Positions 6,889 through 16,598 of a stretch of DNA of 64,000 nt are shown here, one piece after another; the stretch's first letter is position 1; each line of letters opens with the position of its first letter. The translations under genes and the position numbers were made by a program. This stretch comes from Scatophagus argus. Taxonomy: Eukaryota; Chordata; Actinopteri; Scatophagidae. The notes under the pieces were generated by a model. That model saw only the letters and a program-made list of their open reading frames with translations. It had not been told where the DNA came from and ran no database searches. Where the stretch lies: positions 5,687,223-5,751,222 of the forward strand of contig NC_058515.1 in NCBI RefSeq assembly GCF_020382885.2, in the 5' to 3' direction.

Positions 6889-7031
6889 CGCGGCGGTACC
6901 CTGCTCAACTGCAGTTTAGATAAATAGGCTACTTTTACTGATTTATAGGTTTGTATGAAAGATATTTTGCGCACATAAGGAGCATTGCAAACTAGGAAGA
7001 GGCTGTCATGCTAGTCCCGCCCACGCAGTCA

Positions 7032-7098
7032 CCAATTGGACTGTTTGATGGGGAACAAGCTAATTGGTCATTGCAGACATATGAAGTTGACTGATTGG
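7032..7098 (-). promoter_or_regulatory. arl2: arl2 promoter: three regularly spaced CCAAT boxes
   Basis: ATTGG (CCAAT on minus) occurs at 7035-7039, 7063-7067 and 7094-7098, spaced 28 and 31 bp apart. They lie about 147, 175 and 206 bp upstream of the arl2 ATG. The first sits in a CCAATTGG palindrome, so it also reads CCAAT on plus. NF-Y binds CCAAT, and spacing near three helical turns is typical of NF-Y-driven housekeeping promoters. Binding here is inferred. Confidence 0.55.
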
Positions 7099-7139
7099 TC
7101 GATGAGGATTTTTAGGTGGGGCCGTGATGTAGAGGCGCG

Positions 7140-9740
7140 TTTTCGTGCGTTTGGCGCCCCCTTGTGTCTGACATTAGCTACGTTTTCACTTTAGATATTT
7201 GTCATTCATTCTGGCTTTCACAGCTTGGTTCCCAAAATATTCTAAAACACATAACGGAGGATAGAATAATAAAGTGAACATCCCGCCGTTGTCATGAAAG
7301 AGAAACATGCTGTGCGTTCAACGTGGGAAAAACTGTCCGCCCCATATAATTAGCCTGCATTACATTTTCTATAACAGTGCTAAATCATCCTACAATCCAA
7401 AACGTTTCCAATTTTCATTAAAAAAATAAAACATGCTATTAGAATTAATAATATATAATATACCTAGAGTATCACAGAATAAAATTAAACTGAGATTAAT
7501 CTCATGCCTAAATTAGCATTGAAACGATACCTTATCAGTTTATTCATCAATGATATAAGTGTTTATTTTGATCATTGACAGTAAATTACAATAATTTATT
7601 ATTTCAATAATACCTCTATATGTTGGATGTTTTCAAAATCCATCTTTATGTATATATCATATTTGACTAATGAGAAGCTAAGGTCTAATCAAGTTTATCA
7701 CTGACATCCTCACTATTAACTTAACCAGTCCAACATTTTATAGAATGAACACAACTGTGAAATATTTAAAAAAAAAATCCCTTATCAGGTGAAATAATTT
7801 ATTCTGATTGTAAAAATCAACACATCTAGTAAACACAAGCTTTGATACTTTTGTAAAACATTTCAGTATGGGCTGTTTATTGAGAAGAGAGTACACACTC
7901 AATGATAAAACAATTTGTTTTATTTTAATTATTATTATTCACACAATTGATTTTCTGCTCTAAATTTTGACATTTTCAGTTAGAATGGCACAGCAAAAGG
8001 GCAGAAGAGGGGAGGAAGAAGATTCCAGTTATTACGAACCATAAGGGCTTGAATGGATTTGAAAATGTTACTTTTGTGCCAACACCAGATTACACCTTTA
8101 ATTCCACATGAACCGGAGCCCAGGCTGAGGTCTTTGGCATGCCATTGTGTTTACTGGCTTAACATTTTACTCAGTCATGGAAAATATGTATCTAAATAAT
8201 TAAAAATGAAATTAGAATTTTAGGTATAAAACATACTATCAGATCTTGAGATATGACACACAGTTTTTAATTCAGCAAGCCAAAGGTATGTGATGAGTAA
8301 CATTTAACACTGTAACATTTAATTGCTGCGGTCACATGAAGACATCAGTTTTAAAAAAAATCCAGTCGCTCCTGCCATTCTGCATAATGAGCACTTTTAA
8401 TTTATTGATGACATAATTATGTTTTTATTTATATCTATGTATCCATTTTTTTGAATGACAATATTGAAGTTTTAATGGTTTCAGCTGTAAATTTTGATGT
8501 TTAATCTTTAATGGTGATTATGTGTTGTGTAGATGTTTGACTCCATACAAATCAAATGAAGAAACCAAAATTTATGTAACCAACCACACTGGCAATCCTT
8601 AAAAAGTCTTTCGCTCAAATGTTTAAATCTTACCCTGCATTGTTTAAAGTTTATAGTGTTCATTTCTGACCGGTTTGATTATTATCTCGTGTGACGTGAT
8701 GTCAGCATACTTGGCCATTTCTCATTCAAAACATCGATCTAAAACCATCCCTCTGATAAAAATGTCAAACAGTCCCTTAAATGGCTGAAACTAAAGTTAA
8801 TTCTCGGCAGAGTTTCAGGGTCTTGGTACAATACGGGGCCGCCGTGTGGCTGCGGTATCACAGGGGAGGTTTGAAGTTGACAATACCGGGAATCAGAGCC
8901 CGTCTCAGCACCTCTGTGCGCACCCCACGCCGATGTGAAACCCAACCACCGTCTCACCCACTGTCATGCACACTCATGACTGACTCTCAGTCTGAGTCTG
9001 ACACACACATATACACACACCTTTTTACATCATGGTGACATGAAGAAACCTCTTTCATCAGCTTCCAAAGGCTTTGGAAGAATCCATGCTTCATGAGCAA
9101 ATAAATAAATCCCTCCGTCACTTTGACTGACGGGGTTTGACAACGTTCACTGAAACTCTGCTTCAAACAGTTTCACACATTCACAACACTGTGAGTGGTC
9201 GGCTAACGTGTAGCTCATCGGGAACATTTTGAAGTTCTCTGCTTCGTTCAAGGACAACATAAGGTTAGTTTCTTAAAACATTTGTGCTTCTATCCCTGCT
9301 GTCTGATTTGTATTAATGATTATTGTCAGGGCTTCAGAACATGGCGGCATTGTCACTCCTCTTAAGGCTTAACAGGGCTGCGTGACTGCCTGTCCCGCTT
9401 ATGGTTTTGTAACAAGGAAATAAAATGCAACATTGGAAAACACCAGAACCAAAAACTTTCAAACTTTAACTTTCAAATTTACACATGTAACAGCAATGTA
9501 TTTCAGTCAAATTAAAATCAGAAACACACTGTTAAAGTTTGCACCATATTTATTATTCTTTTCTTTTGTCCTAGAATGAGCCAACTCACTTTCTTAACTG
9601 ACTCGACTTCTGAGTCCGGATGCTGTGAGGTGGTGGCAAACTCCGGTGTGCAGGTCTGTGAGGAGCATCCCAAACCCACCAGCACAGAAGAAGTGAATGG
9701 AAACAACAACATCCCCTGTGCTGGTCAGGCCCGGGCGGCC
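7140..9740. other. intergenic region between arl2 and the unknown minus-strand gene
   Basis: It is mostly AT-rich sequence without a convincing reading frame. The only less AT-rich block is 8840-8990, which has a short open frame on each strand and a loose tRNA-like look, but no cloverleaf I could build. No poly(A) signal or splice pattern ties it to a gene. Confidence 0.6.
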
Positions 9741-9775
9741 CTCATCGTCTGGACGGGTAGGTGTAGAGGCTGGTG

Positions 9776-12341
9776 TCAGGGGTCAGCATACACATCTGTG
9801 GAAACAAAAAAGAAAACAGGAAAATACAACAAAATGAATTTGAATCAATCAGTTATTAAATTAACTGGAAGAATTGCAGGAGACTTTCATCAAAAATTTT
9901 CTACATTTTCTACTTCACCTCTAAGCCTAACCATCAACTAAAATTTCTAAGATTCACTGGAGACTTTTCATAATTAAGTAGTTCATAAGTAATTAGTAAC
10001 TTACCTGTCTGTTGTGTCTGATTCAGCCACCTACACCTAACTAAAAAAACATGATAATCTAAAATCATATAATAAATTGAATTACTGGTAAGTGAATCCC
10101 ACCGCTGCCTCTTCACGTTTAGCTGCTCTTCATTGCTCTCATCTCTGGTCCTCTTTGCTGTGGAGCTGAGGCCTGAAGTAGAGGGAGCAGGCTGCTCGTT
10201 GCTTTCTTCACACCTCTGCTTCTTCATGCTTACATGCTCCAAGTCACACTCTTCTCTCCTCCTCTTTGTGGATGAGCTGAGGCCTGAGGTTGAGGGAGAA
10301 GCCTCTTCCTGCCTTTGGGAAGCCAAGGGGAGACCTTCTGGAAGTGGGTCTGCTCGCTGCTGAGGAAGCTCCTGATGCTAGACAATGAGCTGCTGAGGAA
10401 CACCAACAGGAGAACAATGTAATCGCCATCCCTGCCAAAAACTCCCTTGGCAACTACTGGGTCATCATCGTCAGTGTCTTCATCTTCCTCGAGCTCATCT
10501 TCATCCTCTTCAACCTCATCGTTGTCGTCAGAAGAGAGTGGGGGATTGTCCTGACCTTCATCTTCAAAAACAACCTCAACCTCACCTTCCGTTTCCTCAT
10601 CTGAAGAGATGATGATGGGGAGATTGTGACCTTCGTCGTCATCGATAATCCTGATGACTCCTGCAGGACGTTCAATGACGTAGTTCACACCACCTGAGGA
10701 GAACAAAGTTAAGGAACCTTGAAACTTGATTTCAAATTTCAATATCTGTCATAACATTTAATATATGTGGTTACCGTAAACATGCAAATGTAAATGAAGA
10801 TCTACAATCCACATGACACCAACACATGACAGGCCCTTTTCACAGTAATATCAAAGACTGCAGGTCTCCATTACTATGAACAGAATGAGAACAATTTGAT
10901 GCTGTATTTATGTCCCACTTAATAGTTACCATTATTTACTCTACTTAATCACCTGGAAAAAATTGTAACTGTTCATGAACTTGGAAGAAACTTATTCACA
11001 GGAATGAAAGTTTTTACAACATCAAGTACAGTTATATTGACAAGTATCGAGTTTAGGTCATTGTGTCAAATTAAAAATCTTTACAATTTACACACATACA
11101 AAATGGCGAAATCTGAGAACCTTTAAACCCCCCGTTTGTAGCAGCTCAATGCTGTTATAATGTTGAGACCATATTCAAGGCAGTTGGTTTGTGGGCAAGA
11201 GTTTCTCAAATGTTATTAACACAGGAAACATTACAAAACATAATAATAATAATAATAATAATAATAACATTATACAAGGAGATTTGGCGTTATGCGCTGC
11301 GCGCACTTTTACGCACAGTTCTTCCCACGTCTCGCGCACGCAACAGAAATGTTAAATAACAGGGAAACTATGGGAAGGCGAAGGACTATCAGACATGATT
11401 CTCGGGGGAAAATATGATCGATCTGTCAGTGGTTCAATTAATCGACTGACAAAGGCATGAATTCTTTGCATCCAATAACTAAGTGAATCATGTGTACTCT
11501 GGTTAATAAATCATGTGCAACCAACAACAGAACTTCTCTAAAATAGGAACAATGAACTCTGTACAGACCATACTGGTAGTTTCTAACTCCTTATCGTCAC
11601 ACTTCATGAGCTGCATATCACGATGTGTGAATGAGACGGCTGCATCCCGGACGCATGGCGCCCACATGCTGCCCCGTACAGCTGACAAATAGCTCTCAGA
11701 ATCAGCTTTATTTGCCAAGTACGTGTGACCATACAAGGAATTTGACTCTGGATTTTTCTCTCTCCTGTGCACCATACAAAATAACAAATAATAGTAATAA
11801 AAAATGAAGAATAAAGTATTTACAAGAAGAAAAAAAAAACCCTGAGATAAATATATATATACATGTAGTGCAAACAGTGTGATGGTTCACACAATGGCAG
11901 GTGGATTACGGGGAGATCAGGGAGACAGCCTGGGGGAAGAAACTGTTTTTGTGTCTGGTAGTGTTGGCATACAGAGCTCTGTAACGCCTACCAGAGGGAA
12001 GCAGATCAAACAGTTTGTGTGCAGGGTGTGAGGGGTCTGCAGTGATGCTTCCTGCCCATTTTTTAAATTAACATGTTACACAGAGAAATCATGGAGTAAT
12101 AGTCACCAAATCTATGCCAACAGCCCTAATGATATAGCATCATTTAGCTACTTTTACATTCAAAACCTTTCACTGATTTCTTGTACGGATAAAACTTTAA
12201 AGGGTTTAAAGAGGGTTTAACAACGAATCTGTCACAAATAAAACTCTAAAATCATTTTTTCTCACCTGCCATGTCGTTGTCCAACTCAAGGGCCACTTCC
12301 GTCCGAAAGGGTCCCTCGTTGACGGGTCTGCTGAAGGCCAT
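9776..12341 (-). CDS. unrecognised acidic nuclear-type protein with tandem SUMO-interaction-like motifs
   Basis: I do not recognise this gene. The best model has coding exons 12266-12341, 10458-10693, 10005-10377 and 9776-9795, giving 234 aa with all phases in register. Residues 1-104 hold three hydrophobic patches each followed by acidic residues: VIRII-DDDE (about 38-46), PIII-SSDEE (51-59) and VEVV-FEDE (64-71). This is the pattern of SUMO-interacting motifs. A Glu/Asp run follows (83-103). Exon 3 carries two copies of a PSTSGLSS-T-KR-R-E unit, each followed by a basic VSMKKQR or LNVKRQR patch that could act as a nuclear signal. The intron 10378-10457 is only 80 nt and uses the weak donor GTAGTT. 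Reading through it keeps a second frame open to 10230, so a longer hydrophobic alternative exists. The end of exon 3 and exon 4 are the least certain. The first intron holds a LINE fragment. Confidence 0.5.
11240..11267. repeat. (AAT)n microsatellite
   Basis: About nine TAA/AAT units in the first intron of the unknown minus-strand gene. Confidence 0.9.
11695..12060 (-). mobile_element. 5'-truncated non-LTR retrotransposon (LINE) 3' end
   Basis: On the minus strand the fragment opens inside the reverse-transcriptase ORF and keeps its last codons in frame, including DPSHPAHKLFDLLPSGRRYR and TTRHKNSFFPQAVSLISP before a stop. This ending is typical of L2/Rex1/CR1-like fish LINEs. A short AT-rich 3' UTR follows and ends with GGCAAATAAAGCTGATTCTGAG, the 3' terminus I recall for such elements. 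Everything upstream of the final 50 or so codons is missing, as usual for dead-on-arrival copies. The orientation matches the host gene. The subfamily is uncertain. Confidence 0.8.
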
Positions 12342-12564
12342 TTTCAAGCTCTTCAGTTTTCCTCAATGATTCAGTGATCCGGTAGTTTTGTTTTTCAGCA
12401 AGTTTTCCAAACGATGCTTTCCAGCGCTCAAATTCTCCAAAAGAGAAAACTTTCCACAGTTTAGGTTTGCCAGAAGTCAACTCGTGCCAAAGTCCAAGTG
12501 AAAAGGGAAGAAACAGAATATTCTGCGGCCTTTTATATGACCTGGGTCGACATTCTGTTTCCAT
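12286..12564 (-). other. upstream ORF overlapping the start of the unknown gene
   Basis: An ATG at 12564 opens a 92-codon frame (METECRPRSYKRPQN...) that overlaps the main ATG (12341) in another frame and stops at 12286, before the first donor. If transcription starts upstream of 12564, this would be a long overlapping uORF able to limit translation of the main frame. It resembles no protein I know and may be fortuitous. Confidence 0.3.
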
Positions 12565-12599
12565 GGAATTTACAGACGCACATCTACGATAGTTTTATT

Positions 12600-14400
12600 T
12601 ACAGTTTTTCCCATATTTGTGAAATATATTTTTGTTTTATTTGTGCTTGTATTTTTTTCCACTAATGTATTTGCAACCATTCGGTTTACTTTCATTCTTG
12701 CATAACTGCTATGTAGCAACATGGAGACCATAAGTTATGTTCTTGTTATAATTACATTGTAAATCTCTAACATCTAACAAAGATTGAAGCAAAAGGAAAT
12801 TAACACTGTACTGTTTTTATGATCATCTGATCATTTCATGAACGTTTTACAAAACTTTTAGGTGACTCAAGAAATGGTGTAAATCTGTTAAAACGGGTCC
12901 CGTGGCTGAATTTGCAGCGATGTTCTGGCAAGTTTTGTATCAACAAGGTCGGGGATCATAGGTCAGTGAAAATAACTGTTTTATCTGAGAGATATTTATC
13001 CATGATTTCCTGTGTGAGTTATTTATAGCAGGTGTTGCCTTCTTCATACAATATTCACAGTTTTCTGGGCTTAGAAAATACTAAAATACAATTGGTGTAC
13101 TTTCAATTGGGAGGGAAAGACACTTCCTTAGAGCTCCTGTGAGATTTTATGTGTTTACTTTGCACATTTTATCAGTAACCATACACTTTTTCATATATCA
13201 TATAAATAACATTTCTAAATGTACCTTTGACTGACATTTTTAAAAATAGTAGTGTAGACTGCAAAAGATCATTTAGTTGACTGTCCAAGAGGCTCATAAG
13301 TAAATCATTTTCTTTTCGTTTCTACTCTTGTGTCCACAGAGTCTTAAGTATGCATTTTGACTAAATAGCTCATCCCATGCGAGTGACGCCAAACAAAACT
13401 GCTGTAAATTATTTCAAGTCTGGCACACACATACCTTAAGAAAATATTGGATACAGTGGAAACGTATATATACTGTTATTTGTGTTATTTATTACTCCAC
13501 ATATAGTACATCTTACTGCTTTCTACTTTATTTTATACAACAATAACTTAATAAGGATGAAGACCAAATGATGCTTGTATGATATAATAAATTCCTTTGT
13601 TTTTAACAGCTAATAATAATATTGTGTGCAAAAGGTAGACCTGACATCATCTGGGTCACCAATAGAATAAAAATATACGTTAAAAAATCTTTACCATTCT
13701 TAGTGATGAGTTGTTGTTTATTCACCTTTTTCCAATTTCAGAGTTTTAGGTCTTTAGGACTTTTACTTTATATTAACAAAGTATTTTGATATATCAGCAA
13801 CAACTTCAGAGAGGAAACCAGCGAACATGTTAGGGTTCTGAAGCAGAATAGCTCTGGAATTTAGTACCGTTTAATTTAAAGTGCTTGTTTGCTCCTTGTC
13901 TTGTCTGTACTTAACAGGCTTGTGTGTGTGTCTAAACTCCGCACATGGTCAAAGAATGCCCTTCTTCCACCTCTTCTTGCCGAGTACTATTACATCATTT
14001 CCTGCAGAGAACAAGTTAAAGCTGTTGGGTGAAGTCTGCAGTCTTGATCGCTTATTTCCTGGCAAAGGCTCTTGAGAAATTCCCTGAACGAGAAGTTTGC
14101 GGCTCCAGCTTAATTCTTAAATTGGTCATTCAGCCCGGACCTGTTCCTGTCCCAGAGCAGCGCTCCCCATTCATTCCTCATGATGCGTTCAAGTGTAAAC
14201 GGAACTATTATGTTAGTATTTGGACTACGTTGTAGTTGTCCGCACATTTACAGTAAGACAACATACCTGTACGATACCTATGGAGAAATATACTTACATG
14301 GCACTTATCGACAACCAGGACTTGGGCAGATAGGCAGATAAGGTACGAACATACACTGGAAAAGTGAAACTAACGTACTGGCAGGAATGCAGCAGAGCCC
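12600..14400. other. intergenic region between the unknown gene and batf2
   Basis: This is AT-rich sequence between the divergent 5' ends of the two genes. I see no gene. A GAS-like TTCCCTGAA lies at 14080-14088, and the batf2 promoter or 5' UTR probably begins in the last several hundred bases. Confidence 0.5.
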
Positions 14401-14453
14401 CCCGCCCACACACACACACGCTTCACTCGCAATGCCTCCGTTTAAAATAAAGA

Positions 14454-14463
14454 GAAACTGAAA
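14454..14463 (+). promoter_or_regulatory. batf2: perfect ISRE core (GAAACTGAAA) upstream of batf2
   Basis: GAAACTGAAA fits the GAAANNGAAA consensus bound by IRF/ISGF3 and lies 389 bp upstream of the chosen batf2 start. Mammalian BATF2 (SARI) is induced by type I interferon, so the site fits the gene. A GAS-like TTCCCTGAA (14080-14088) lies further upstream. Use of either site is inferred. Confidence 0.55.
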
Positions 14464-14842
14464 GCAGCCGCAGCATCACGTTGCATCAGTGTGCCAAACC
14501 TTCTGTCGTCAAAAGCCAGCAGACACACGGGCTGGACGTTTCGCTTCGGACTTCTCATTTACACGCTCAGCAAATCATCAAGACATTACTCTCCATCCCA
14601 GAAATATAGCATTACCTATGTAGTATCCGGTGCTTTTTTTGTTGTCGTTGTTATTATTAATAATTTTTTTTTGGATCGCGACTCATTCATAGATTGATCC
14701 AAGCGGCAGAGAGACGCGCTGATCCTCCGCCAAGCATCTGGCTTTGAATGGCTCCACTTGCGTGCAGGCTGCACGGATGATCCGGGATGGGTTCGTCCTG
14801 CCGGTGGTCAGCTGTCTAGACAGTTTGCTGCGGGGGGAAGAG

Positions 14843-16598
14843 ATGTCCCCGTTATTCATGGACACTGGGTACAAGCCTCACAGCCCCGGCTCGCTGTCAG
14901 CTGAGGAGAGTCACAGCAACACAACTGGATCCGTAAGTTCTCACTCAAAACCAGTCCAAAATAGACTATAATCACAACATATATGAACACCTGTGATGCG
15001 TACAAGTGTTTGGTTATTCTAATAGCAAGAGAAAAACTGCGCTAAAACGTAGAGTGACATCCCTTGTAACCATTATTAAAACAATCCCCTAAATGAATCC
15101 TTTAATGTTATTTATTTACATTTTATCCCACCCCGATCCATGCATTTCTTGTTTTGGTCTTTCCCAAAGCACATCGTAACAGCAACTAATTTTCAAATCA
15201 ATCAAAACTCACAGCTGAGCAGATACTTTCCAAGTCCCAATAATGGGACTATTAGTAATATTTGGGATTTCCCAAGAATCTGTCAAGAGATGCACAATAT
15301 ATGTGAAGTCCCCAGTTTAATTCCAGCTGGGGATGTTTACAGGATGTTGCGCCTCCTCTGCCTCTCCTTTGTTTTCACTTCTGAGTGAAATGTGAGGTGT
15401 GAAAAACTGTGGATGATCAAATAAAGTAATAAAATAATAATAATAATACAAAAAACTCAAATAAGAATGAATGAACACCCTAAACCTGGTGTAAAATAGA
15501 CCAAAAAGACAAAAAAGTGCAGAATATTTCATAAACATTCCTTTCAAACTCATGACACATGTTGAATGTGTCTTATAATATTCGCAGCTGTCTTCAGCCT
15601 GGGCTCCCACTTCTGCTGTCAGCAAGTGCCAACTGATGCATATGACTGATGATGGTGATTTCTTTAAAAGAAAAATTCTCTCAAATCTCCTGCACGGTCC
15701 CAGAAATAAAATAAAATAGAAATAAAGACAAAATAGTCATTGGATCTGTCCAATTGTGAGTCCATTTGATGAAGAAATACGCGCTGATGGAGAAAACTGT
15801 TGGTCGGAACAGGACTGAAAGCCTCGTTAACATTATAGGAAACCAGTCTGGACGTTACCTTAACATTTAAACTTTATTTGTTGCTCATCAAATTACCTTA
15901 ACTTTGCTGCTGGAAGGTTTGTTCTTCAATATAACATCACGTGCTAACAACTTCCCACAATTATGAGGAAAACACATGTTACTTCACATGATAATCTTAT
16001 GAGCTTCTTCTTTCAAAACATCATCGAACATCAAAATGTTGTAAATGTGTCCTTTAAAAACACCTCTCAGAAAGCAGCTGGTATGGGTACCACTGTACAA
16101 TAAGACTACTACTCTCATAAAGGATTTACAAATGGTTTTGTTTTGGAATTAGTTCATTAATTATGTTCTTCACACTTTATTAAGATCAACAAGCAGTAGC
16201 AGTCACTGGATCCTGCCAAACTCTGTATTCTAACTTGTTATATGTGTTGATTGTTTGTGAATGATTTACAACGTGTTTACAAGTGTTTGTGTTACTGTAA
16301 AGTGATGTTTAAGTGCGCACTTGAAAAAACACATGTGGAGTACACTGTAATTTACATTAATCTTTACAGGAGAGAGAAGGAGACGGACAACAGACGAAAG
16401 GGAGAGGGACAAAAAGAAAAGAGAAGAACAGAGACGCTGCAAGGAAGAGCCGGAGAAAACAAACGGAGAGAGCGGACGAGCTTCATGAGGTTGGAAATGT
16501 TCATTCCTCCCTCTCTCCATTGCTTCTCTTCTCCCTTTAACCATCACCTTAGCTGCGATTCTGTCACTTTCTGTCTGTCTTTCAAACACACTCTCACA

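What the first reader, a model, noticed from the sequence alone, without database searches (positions are those of the whole stretch)
9776..12341. Unrecognised gene for a small protein with three tandem SUMO-interaction-like motifs and duplicated basic repeats
A phase-consistent model gives a 234-aa protein. Its N-terminal half alternates short Val/Ile patches with acidic runs (VIRIIDDDE, PIIISSDEE, VEVVFEDE). Its second half repeats PSTSGLSS..KR.R.E twice, each followed by a KKQR/KRQR patch. Multi-SIM proteins act as SUMO-chain readers in the nucleus. I know no vertebrate gene with this layout between ARL2 and BATF2. It could be a fish-specific, fast-evolving nuclear factor, perhaps linked to the interferon-responsive neighbour batf2.
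Basis: partly seen in the sequence, partly recalled or inferred. Interest (0 to 1): 0.72.

Follow-up and report, generated by a model that had tools for sequence, protein, structure and literature searches.

The report
Broken duplicate of a fish gene
The supposed new SUMO-reading gene is a damaged copy of a gene that sits at several places in the same fish genome; one copy elsewhere keeps an open reading frame, so this spot looks mostly ordinary, though the gene family itself matched nothing in the libraries that were searched.

Summary
The letters are there: on the minus strand, three V/I patches followed by acidic residues, and a 109-nt tandem duplication encoding two PSTSGLSS…KR… units. It is not an intact single-copy gene, however. 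The window's own genome holds at least nine loci of this family, the window included. Against that copy and a third on another contig, the window copy has an internal deletion of about 357 bp, small indels and an in-frame stop. By my rule SIM-like patches are absent from the C21a and C14 paralogues; a DSGYxS motif, the promoter and the exon-1 border are shared more widely. Best reading: a decayed, duplicated copy of a fast-evolving fish gene for a disordered acidic protein, probably nuclear. An in-frame 160-aa isoform skipping the scar remains possible. Nothing found ties it to batf2.

The parts
7892..13931 (.). Duplicated segment shared, with gaps, with G000:C23 from 6008821 on (about 15.1 kb there) and as far as about 13366 with C15; left border at the same base in all three copies
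12530..12537 (-). TATA box (TATAAAAG) in a promoter conserved in the C23b and C21a paralogues and recognisable, with a changed TATA box, in C14
12266..12341 (-). Exon 1 coding part (25 codons plus one base, phase-1 donor); identical in C23b
10462..10693 (-). 5' part of exon 2: three SIM-like patches and acidic run; 2 of 232 sites differ from C23b
10461..10462 (-). Deletion junction: about 357 bp present in C23b (and an equivalent stretch in C15) is missing here
10378..10457 (-).
10097..10316 (-). Two 109-nt tandem units encoding PSTSGLSS..KR.R.E..KKQR / KRQR
10230..10232 (-). First stop met by the frame from the ATG after splicing intron 1 only (179-aa truncated product)
9796..10004 (-). Probable genuine intron near the 3' end (donor 8.6, acceptor 9.0), with AATAAA at 9554-9549 downstream; by inference in the 3' untranslated part of the intact gene
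   Evidence: inference

Best explanation
The locus is a decayed copy of a fish gene of two or three exons that was copied between two places 315 kb apart on one contig as part of a larger segment. Shown: shared segment, shared promoter and exon 1, loss of an internal stretch of exon 2, frame change and stop. Inferred: the intact gene makes an intrinsically disordered, very acidic nuclear protein with basic nuclear-localisation-type repeats and a DSGYxS motif of the kind read by the ubiquitin ligase adaptor beta-TrCP (recalled), so probably a short-lived nuclear regulator; in the C23/C15 branch the acidic part has duplicated SIM-like patches that could bind SUMO. The window copy lost the stretch with the DSGYxS motif and the frame joining the acidic and basic halves, so it most likely makes no working protein.
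For: At least nine loci in the genome; of these only C23b keeps the whole 293-aa query open, and that query was its own protein. Alignment of window, C23b and C15 shows the window-only deletion and stop in otherwise colinear sequence. Window against C23b: about 13.2 non-synonymous and 0.8 synonymous changes in 169 aligned codons, 2 stop codons set aside, not different from neutral (P=0.17); the last few codons are probably not homologous and inflate the first number. Neutral divergence 88 of 4592 sites, 1.9%. Promoter and exon 1 conserved in paralogues. EDSGYxS in C23b, C21a and C14. Exon-2 piece predicted disordered: mean pLDDT 55, single sequence.
Against: Promoter plus 5'UTR plus exon 1 differ from C23b at only 1 of 295 sites where 5.7 are expected (P=0.022; region chosen after looking), which could mean the window copy was still in use recently. 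A strong, phase-matched splice (10586 to 10283) would skip every lesion and keep a 160-aa frame. No RNA was available. An assembly error cannot be excluded. C15 against C23b dN/dS is 0.72 overall (0.38 in the 5' part, 1.56 in the 3' part) and not significantly below 1, so even C23b is not shown to be functional, and C23b itself lacks the second basic unit.
Confidence: 0.8

Rival explanations
1. The window copy is rescued by splicing: donor 10586 to acceptor 10283 (or 10172) removes most of the acidic run, the deletion junction and the stop, giving a 160-aa (or 123-aa) protein with two SIM-like patches joined to the basic repeats.
For: The donor-like and acceptor-like stretches also exist in C23b and C15. 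Exon 1 and promoter are almost unchanged.
Against: The donor-like GAAG|GTGAGG encodes part of the protein in all three copies and the acceptor-like CTCAG lies in the PSTSG coding stretch, so both may be coincidence; the frame that would be skipped is part of the segment with the best coding score.
Confidence: 0.1
2. The window copy still makes a 179-aa truncated protein: SIM-like patches and acidic run followed by a new frame-shifted tail.
For: ATG, promoter and exon 1 intact; frame open to 10232 after splicing intron 1.
Against: The tail is in another frame than in C23b and the basic repeats are lost; no sign of purifying selection since the duplication, though changes are few.
Confidence: 0.07
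3. One reading: an intact four-exon gene for a 234-aa three-SIM protein, particular to the arl2-batf2 interval.
For: A phase-consistent reading exists and two of its three introns have good sites.
Against: Intron 2 has poor sites and coincides with a deletion relative to two paralogues that are colinear there, one of them open throughout; at least nine loci.
Confidence: 0.03

Closest known systems
Multi-SIM SUMO-chain readers such as RNF4 (four closely spaced SIMs; passages of PMC12751080)
   Same: Several V/I cores followed by acidic residues, closely spaced; five by my rule in the C23b copy
   Different: No RING or other domain found; patches absent by the same rule from C21a and C14; the window copy is broken
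Acidic nuclear proteins with a bipartite basic signal, such as prothymosin alpha (recalled)
   Same: Long acidic run and KR...KKQR-type basic clusters; acidic part predicted disordered
   Different: No sequence similarity shown; exon layout, SIM-like patches and DSGYxS motif
Proteins with a DSGxxS beta-TrCP phosphodegron (motif recalled)
   Same: DSGYES in C23b, DSGYGS in C21a, DSGYDS in C14
   Different: Lost by deletion in the window copy; C15 reads DSGYEL

Membership tests
Multi-SIM SUMO-chain reader | Several SIM cores closely spaced | tested here: inconclusive
   Three in the window copy (149 of 20000 shuffles reach it with a rule set afterwards; stricter rule gives two, about 12.5%); five in C23b (5 of 5000), three in the first C15 frame (78 of 5000), none in C21a and C14
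Multi-SIM SUMO-chain reader | Binds SUMO or poly-SUMO | not testable with these tools
   Needs a binding assay
SUMO-targeted ubiquitin ligase (RNF4-like) | RING domain | tested here: not met
   No Pfam match at its cut-off in the window pieces or in the C23b, C21a and C15 frames; C14 was not scanned
Intact protein-coding gene at this locus | Open frame joined by credible splice sites | tested here: not met
Pseudogene or decayed duplicate | Disabling lesions relative to paralogues | tested here: met
   Deletion, frame change and in-frame stop
Pseudogene or decayed duplicate | Loss of selective constraint | tested here: inconclusive
   Change pattern against C23b not different from neutral but few changes; promoter and exon 1 changed less than expected
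Mobile element | High copy number and terminal repeats | tested here: not met
   Left-end piece found at 3 places in the genome; no terminal inverted or direct repeats in window 7800-14050 at minimum length 18; the shared exact left border is unexplained

The most novel reading that the evidence does not exclude
The C23b paralogue (and perhaps counterparts in other fishes) is a working, undescribed, fast-evolving nuclear regulator that couples SUMO-binding patches, a beta-TrCP-type degron and repeated nuclear-localisation units, spread by segmental duplication; the window copy is a natural deletion variant that may survive through lesion-skipping splicing as a stable, degron-less decoy.
Probability: 0.1. 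Interest if true: 0.6.

Novelty: new member of a known kind. Interest (0 to 1): 0.27.

Why it matters
For this locus: it shows how a phase-consistent hand-made gene model can turn a deletion scar into a false intron, and how a paralogue in the same genome exposes it. For the family: a multi-copy fish gene with a conserved promoter and a fast-changing acidic protein would be a case study in birth and decay of lineage-specific nuclear genes, if the open copy proves to be expressed.

Tried and rejected
Pfam, PDB sequences and viral contigs (26 stretches matched a pattern, none confirmed) gave no relative. Weak Pfam listings (CDC45, Med23, UBA2_C, PH_5, KIND) lie under their cut-offs, and the three PDB listings have E-values of 0.3 to 2.3; all were set aside. 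Rfam at gathering scores: none in 7000-15000. Paper searches 'batf2 + arl2 + teleost', 'SUMO-interacting motif + teleost-specific' and 'batf2 + fish genome + interferon' found 0 papers; two broader ones found 62 and 58 papers, of which the 15 and 8 listed show by title and abstract start nothing on this gene. Of PMC12751080 I saw passages, of the others listings only. Any statement that no paper describes this family rests on these five searches alone.

Mobile-element reading rejected for now: three places found for the left end (the tool calls its counts lower bounds) and no terminal repeats. A viral origin was thought of because of the motifs; nothing found supports it, and it was tested only. 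An RFX- or MHC-like promoter box was considered on sight and not tested. The plus-strand open frame at 9576-9757 scored as coding but has an in-frame stop in the C15 copy (read from the alignment).

The C8, C2, C21b and C21c copies lie in long nested repeat arrays; their borders were not worked out. Three questions stayed open because the genome search did not complete: promoter/exon-1 DNA, the basic repeats alone, and the C14 protein as queries.

Full report
Observation. The pair is a 109-nt repeat of 72% identity at 111-nt spacing, with differences at 12 of 36, 4 of 37 and 14 of 36 sites of codon positions 1, 2 and 3 (Fisher p=0.006). A codon score with a recalled human-like table gives the exon-2 frame the highest value printed for the first 22 kb (segments beyond 22 kb were not printed). 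Neighbours are arl2 (PDB match) and a bZIP gene that fits batf2 (name recalled).

SIM-like patches. With a rule set after seeing the patches, exon 2 has three, reached by 149 of 20000 shuffles; a stricter rule finds two, reached by about 12.5% of shuffles. The evidence for a designed cluster is therefore modest.

The splice model. The 234-aa product is reproduced exactly by using that intron. With intron 1 alone removed, the frame from the ATG stops at 10232-10230 after 179 aa.

Relatives in the same genome. Searching the window's own assembly (570,666,677 bases, 48 contigs) with the exon-2 protein gave 4 matches, the window's own included; with the 293-aa exon-2 protein of the closest copy, 12 matches at 9 loci, that copy and the window included. 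By locus: C23b open over the whole query; C15 in two matches in different frames; the window in two matches in different frames with one TAG; C8 with three stops, C21b, C2 and C21c with two each; C21a with one TAG; C14 without a stop in the short matched part, but with ACG where the others start and several frame changes. The C21a protein as query found itself and the two C23 copies, 3 matches. The tool states that counts are lower bounds.

Duplication. Window 7892-13931 corresponds, with gaps, to about 15.1 kb at C23b, 315 kb away, and as far as about 13366 to C15. The left border falls on the same base in all three, with unrelated flanks; that piece was found at three places in the genome. 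No terminal repeats were found. Substitutions between window and C23b outside the coding and promoter parts are 88 of 4592, so the copy is recent.

The break. In an alignment of window, C23b and C15, the window lacks about 357 bp at 10461/10462 that C23b has (C15 has its own form of it), differs by small indels and carries an in-frame TAG; C23b reads through the whole region in one 311-aa stop-to-stop frame. C15 also has frame changes of its own in the acidic part, so only C23b gives the open reading. Changes between window and C23b in 169 aligned codons are about 13.2 non-synonymous and 0.8 synonymous, 2 stop codons set aside, which does not differ from neutral (P=0.17). The last few codons are probably not homologous, because C23b leaves the shared sequence there, and they inflate the first number.

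What the intact gene may be. C23b has exon 1 identical to the window's, five SIM-like patches in two acidic modules (5 of 5000 shuffles reach five; the modules look like duplicates, so the patches are not independent), the motif DSGYES and one basic unit. C21a and C14 keep the promoter region, the exon-1 border, EDSGYxS and a (L/V)IQQ(L/Y)P stretch but have no SIM-like patch by the same rule. dN/dS is 0.72 for C15 against C23b (0.38 in the 5' part, 1.56 in the 3' part; the whole not significantly under 1), 0.90 for C21a against C23b, 0.46 for C14 against C23b and 0.44 for C14 against C21a: constraint in the past at best, weak now. The exon-2 piece is predicted disordered (mean pLDDT 55, one sequence only). 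From these parts I infer a short-lived acidic nuclear protein; SUMO binding would be a feature of the C23/C15 branch only. The meaning of DSGYxS and of the basic clusters is recalled knowledge.

Against my reading. Promoter, 5'UTR and exon 1 differ from C23b at 1 of 295 sites where 5.7 are expected (P=0.022, region chosen after looking). The strong sites 10586 and 10283 are phase-matched and would give an open 160-aa product that skips every lesion. No RNA, no second individual and no other fish genome could be consulted.

Verdict. A real trace of a gene, correctly noticed, but most likely a broken duplicate rather than a new intact gene of the arl2-batf2 interval. The family is unnamed by the libraries searched and may deserve a look through its C23b copy.

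Noticed in passing
9576-9757 (+): A plus-strand open frame after a good acceptor-like stretch (MSQLTFLTDSTSESGCC...) scores as coding and lies antisense to the 3' end of the gene; its C15 counterpart has an in-frame stop.
   Followed up: partly
7892: Three segments with unrelated flanks begin at exactly the same base (TACACACTCAATGA), although no terminal repeats mark a mobile element.
   Followed up: partly
12555-12565 (-): A stretch CATGGAAACAG ahead of the TATA box is the same in C23b and C14 and differs by one base in C21a; possible factor site, not tested.
   Followed up: no
L023, L024, L025, L026: The C8, C2 and two C21 copies lie in nested tandem and inverted repeat arrays, many matches over 90% alike between contigs; L023 and L025 run into an array whose matches recur about every 75 bp.
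   Followed up: no
L005:220-2735: The C23b copy lies beside open frames that look like slc3a2 (recognised on sight, not tested).
   Followed up: no
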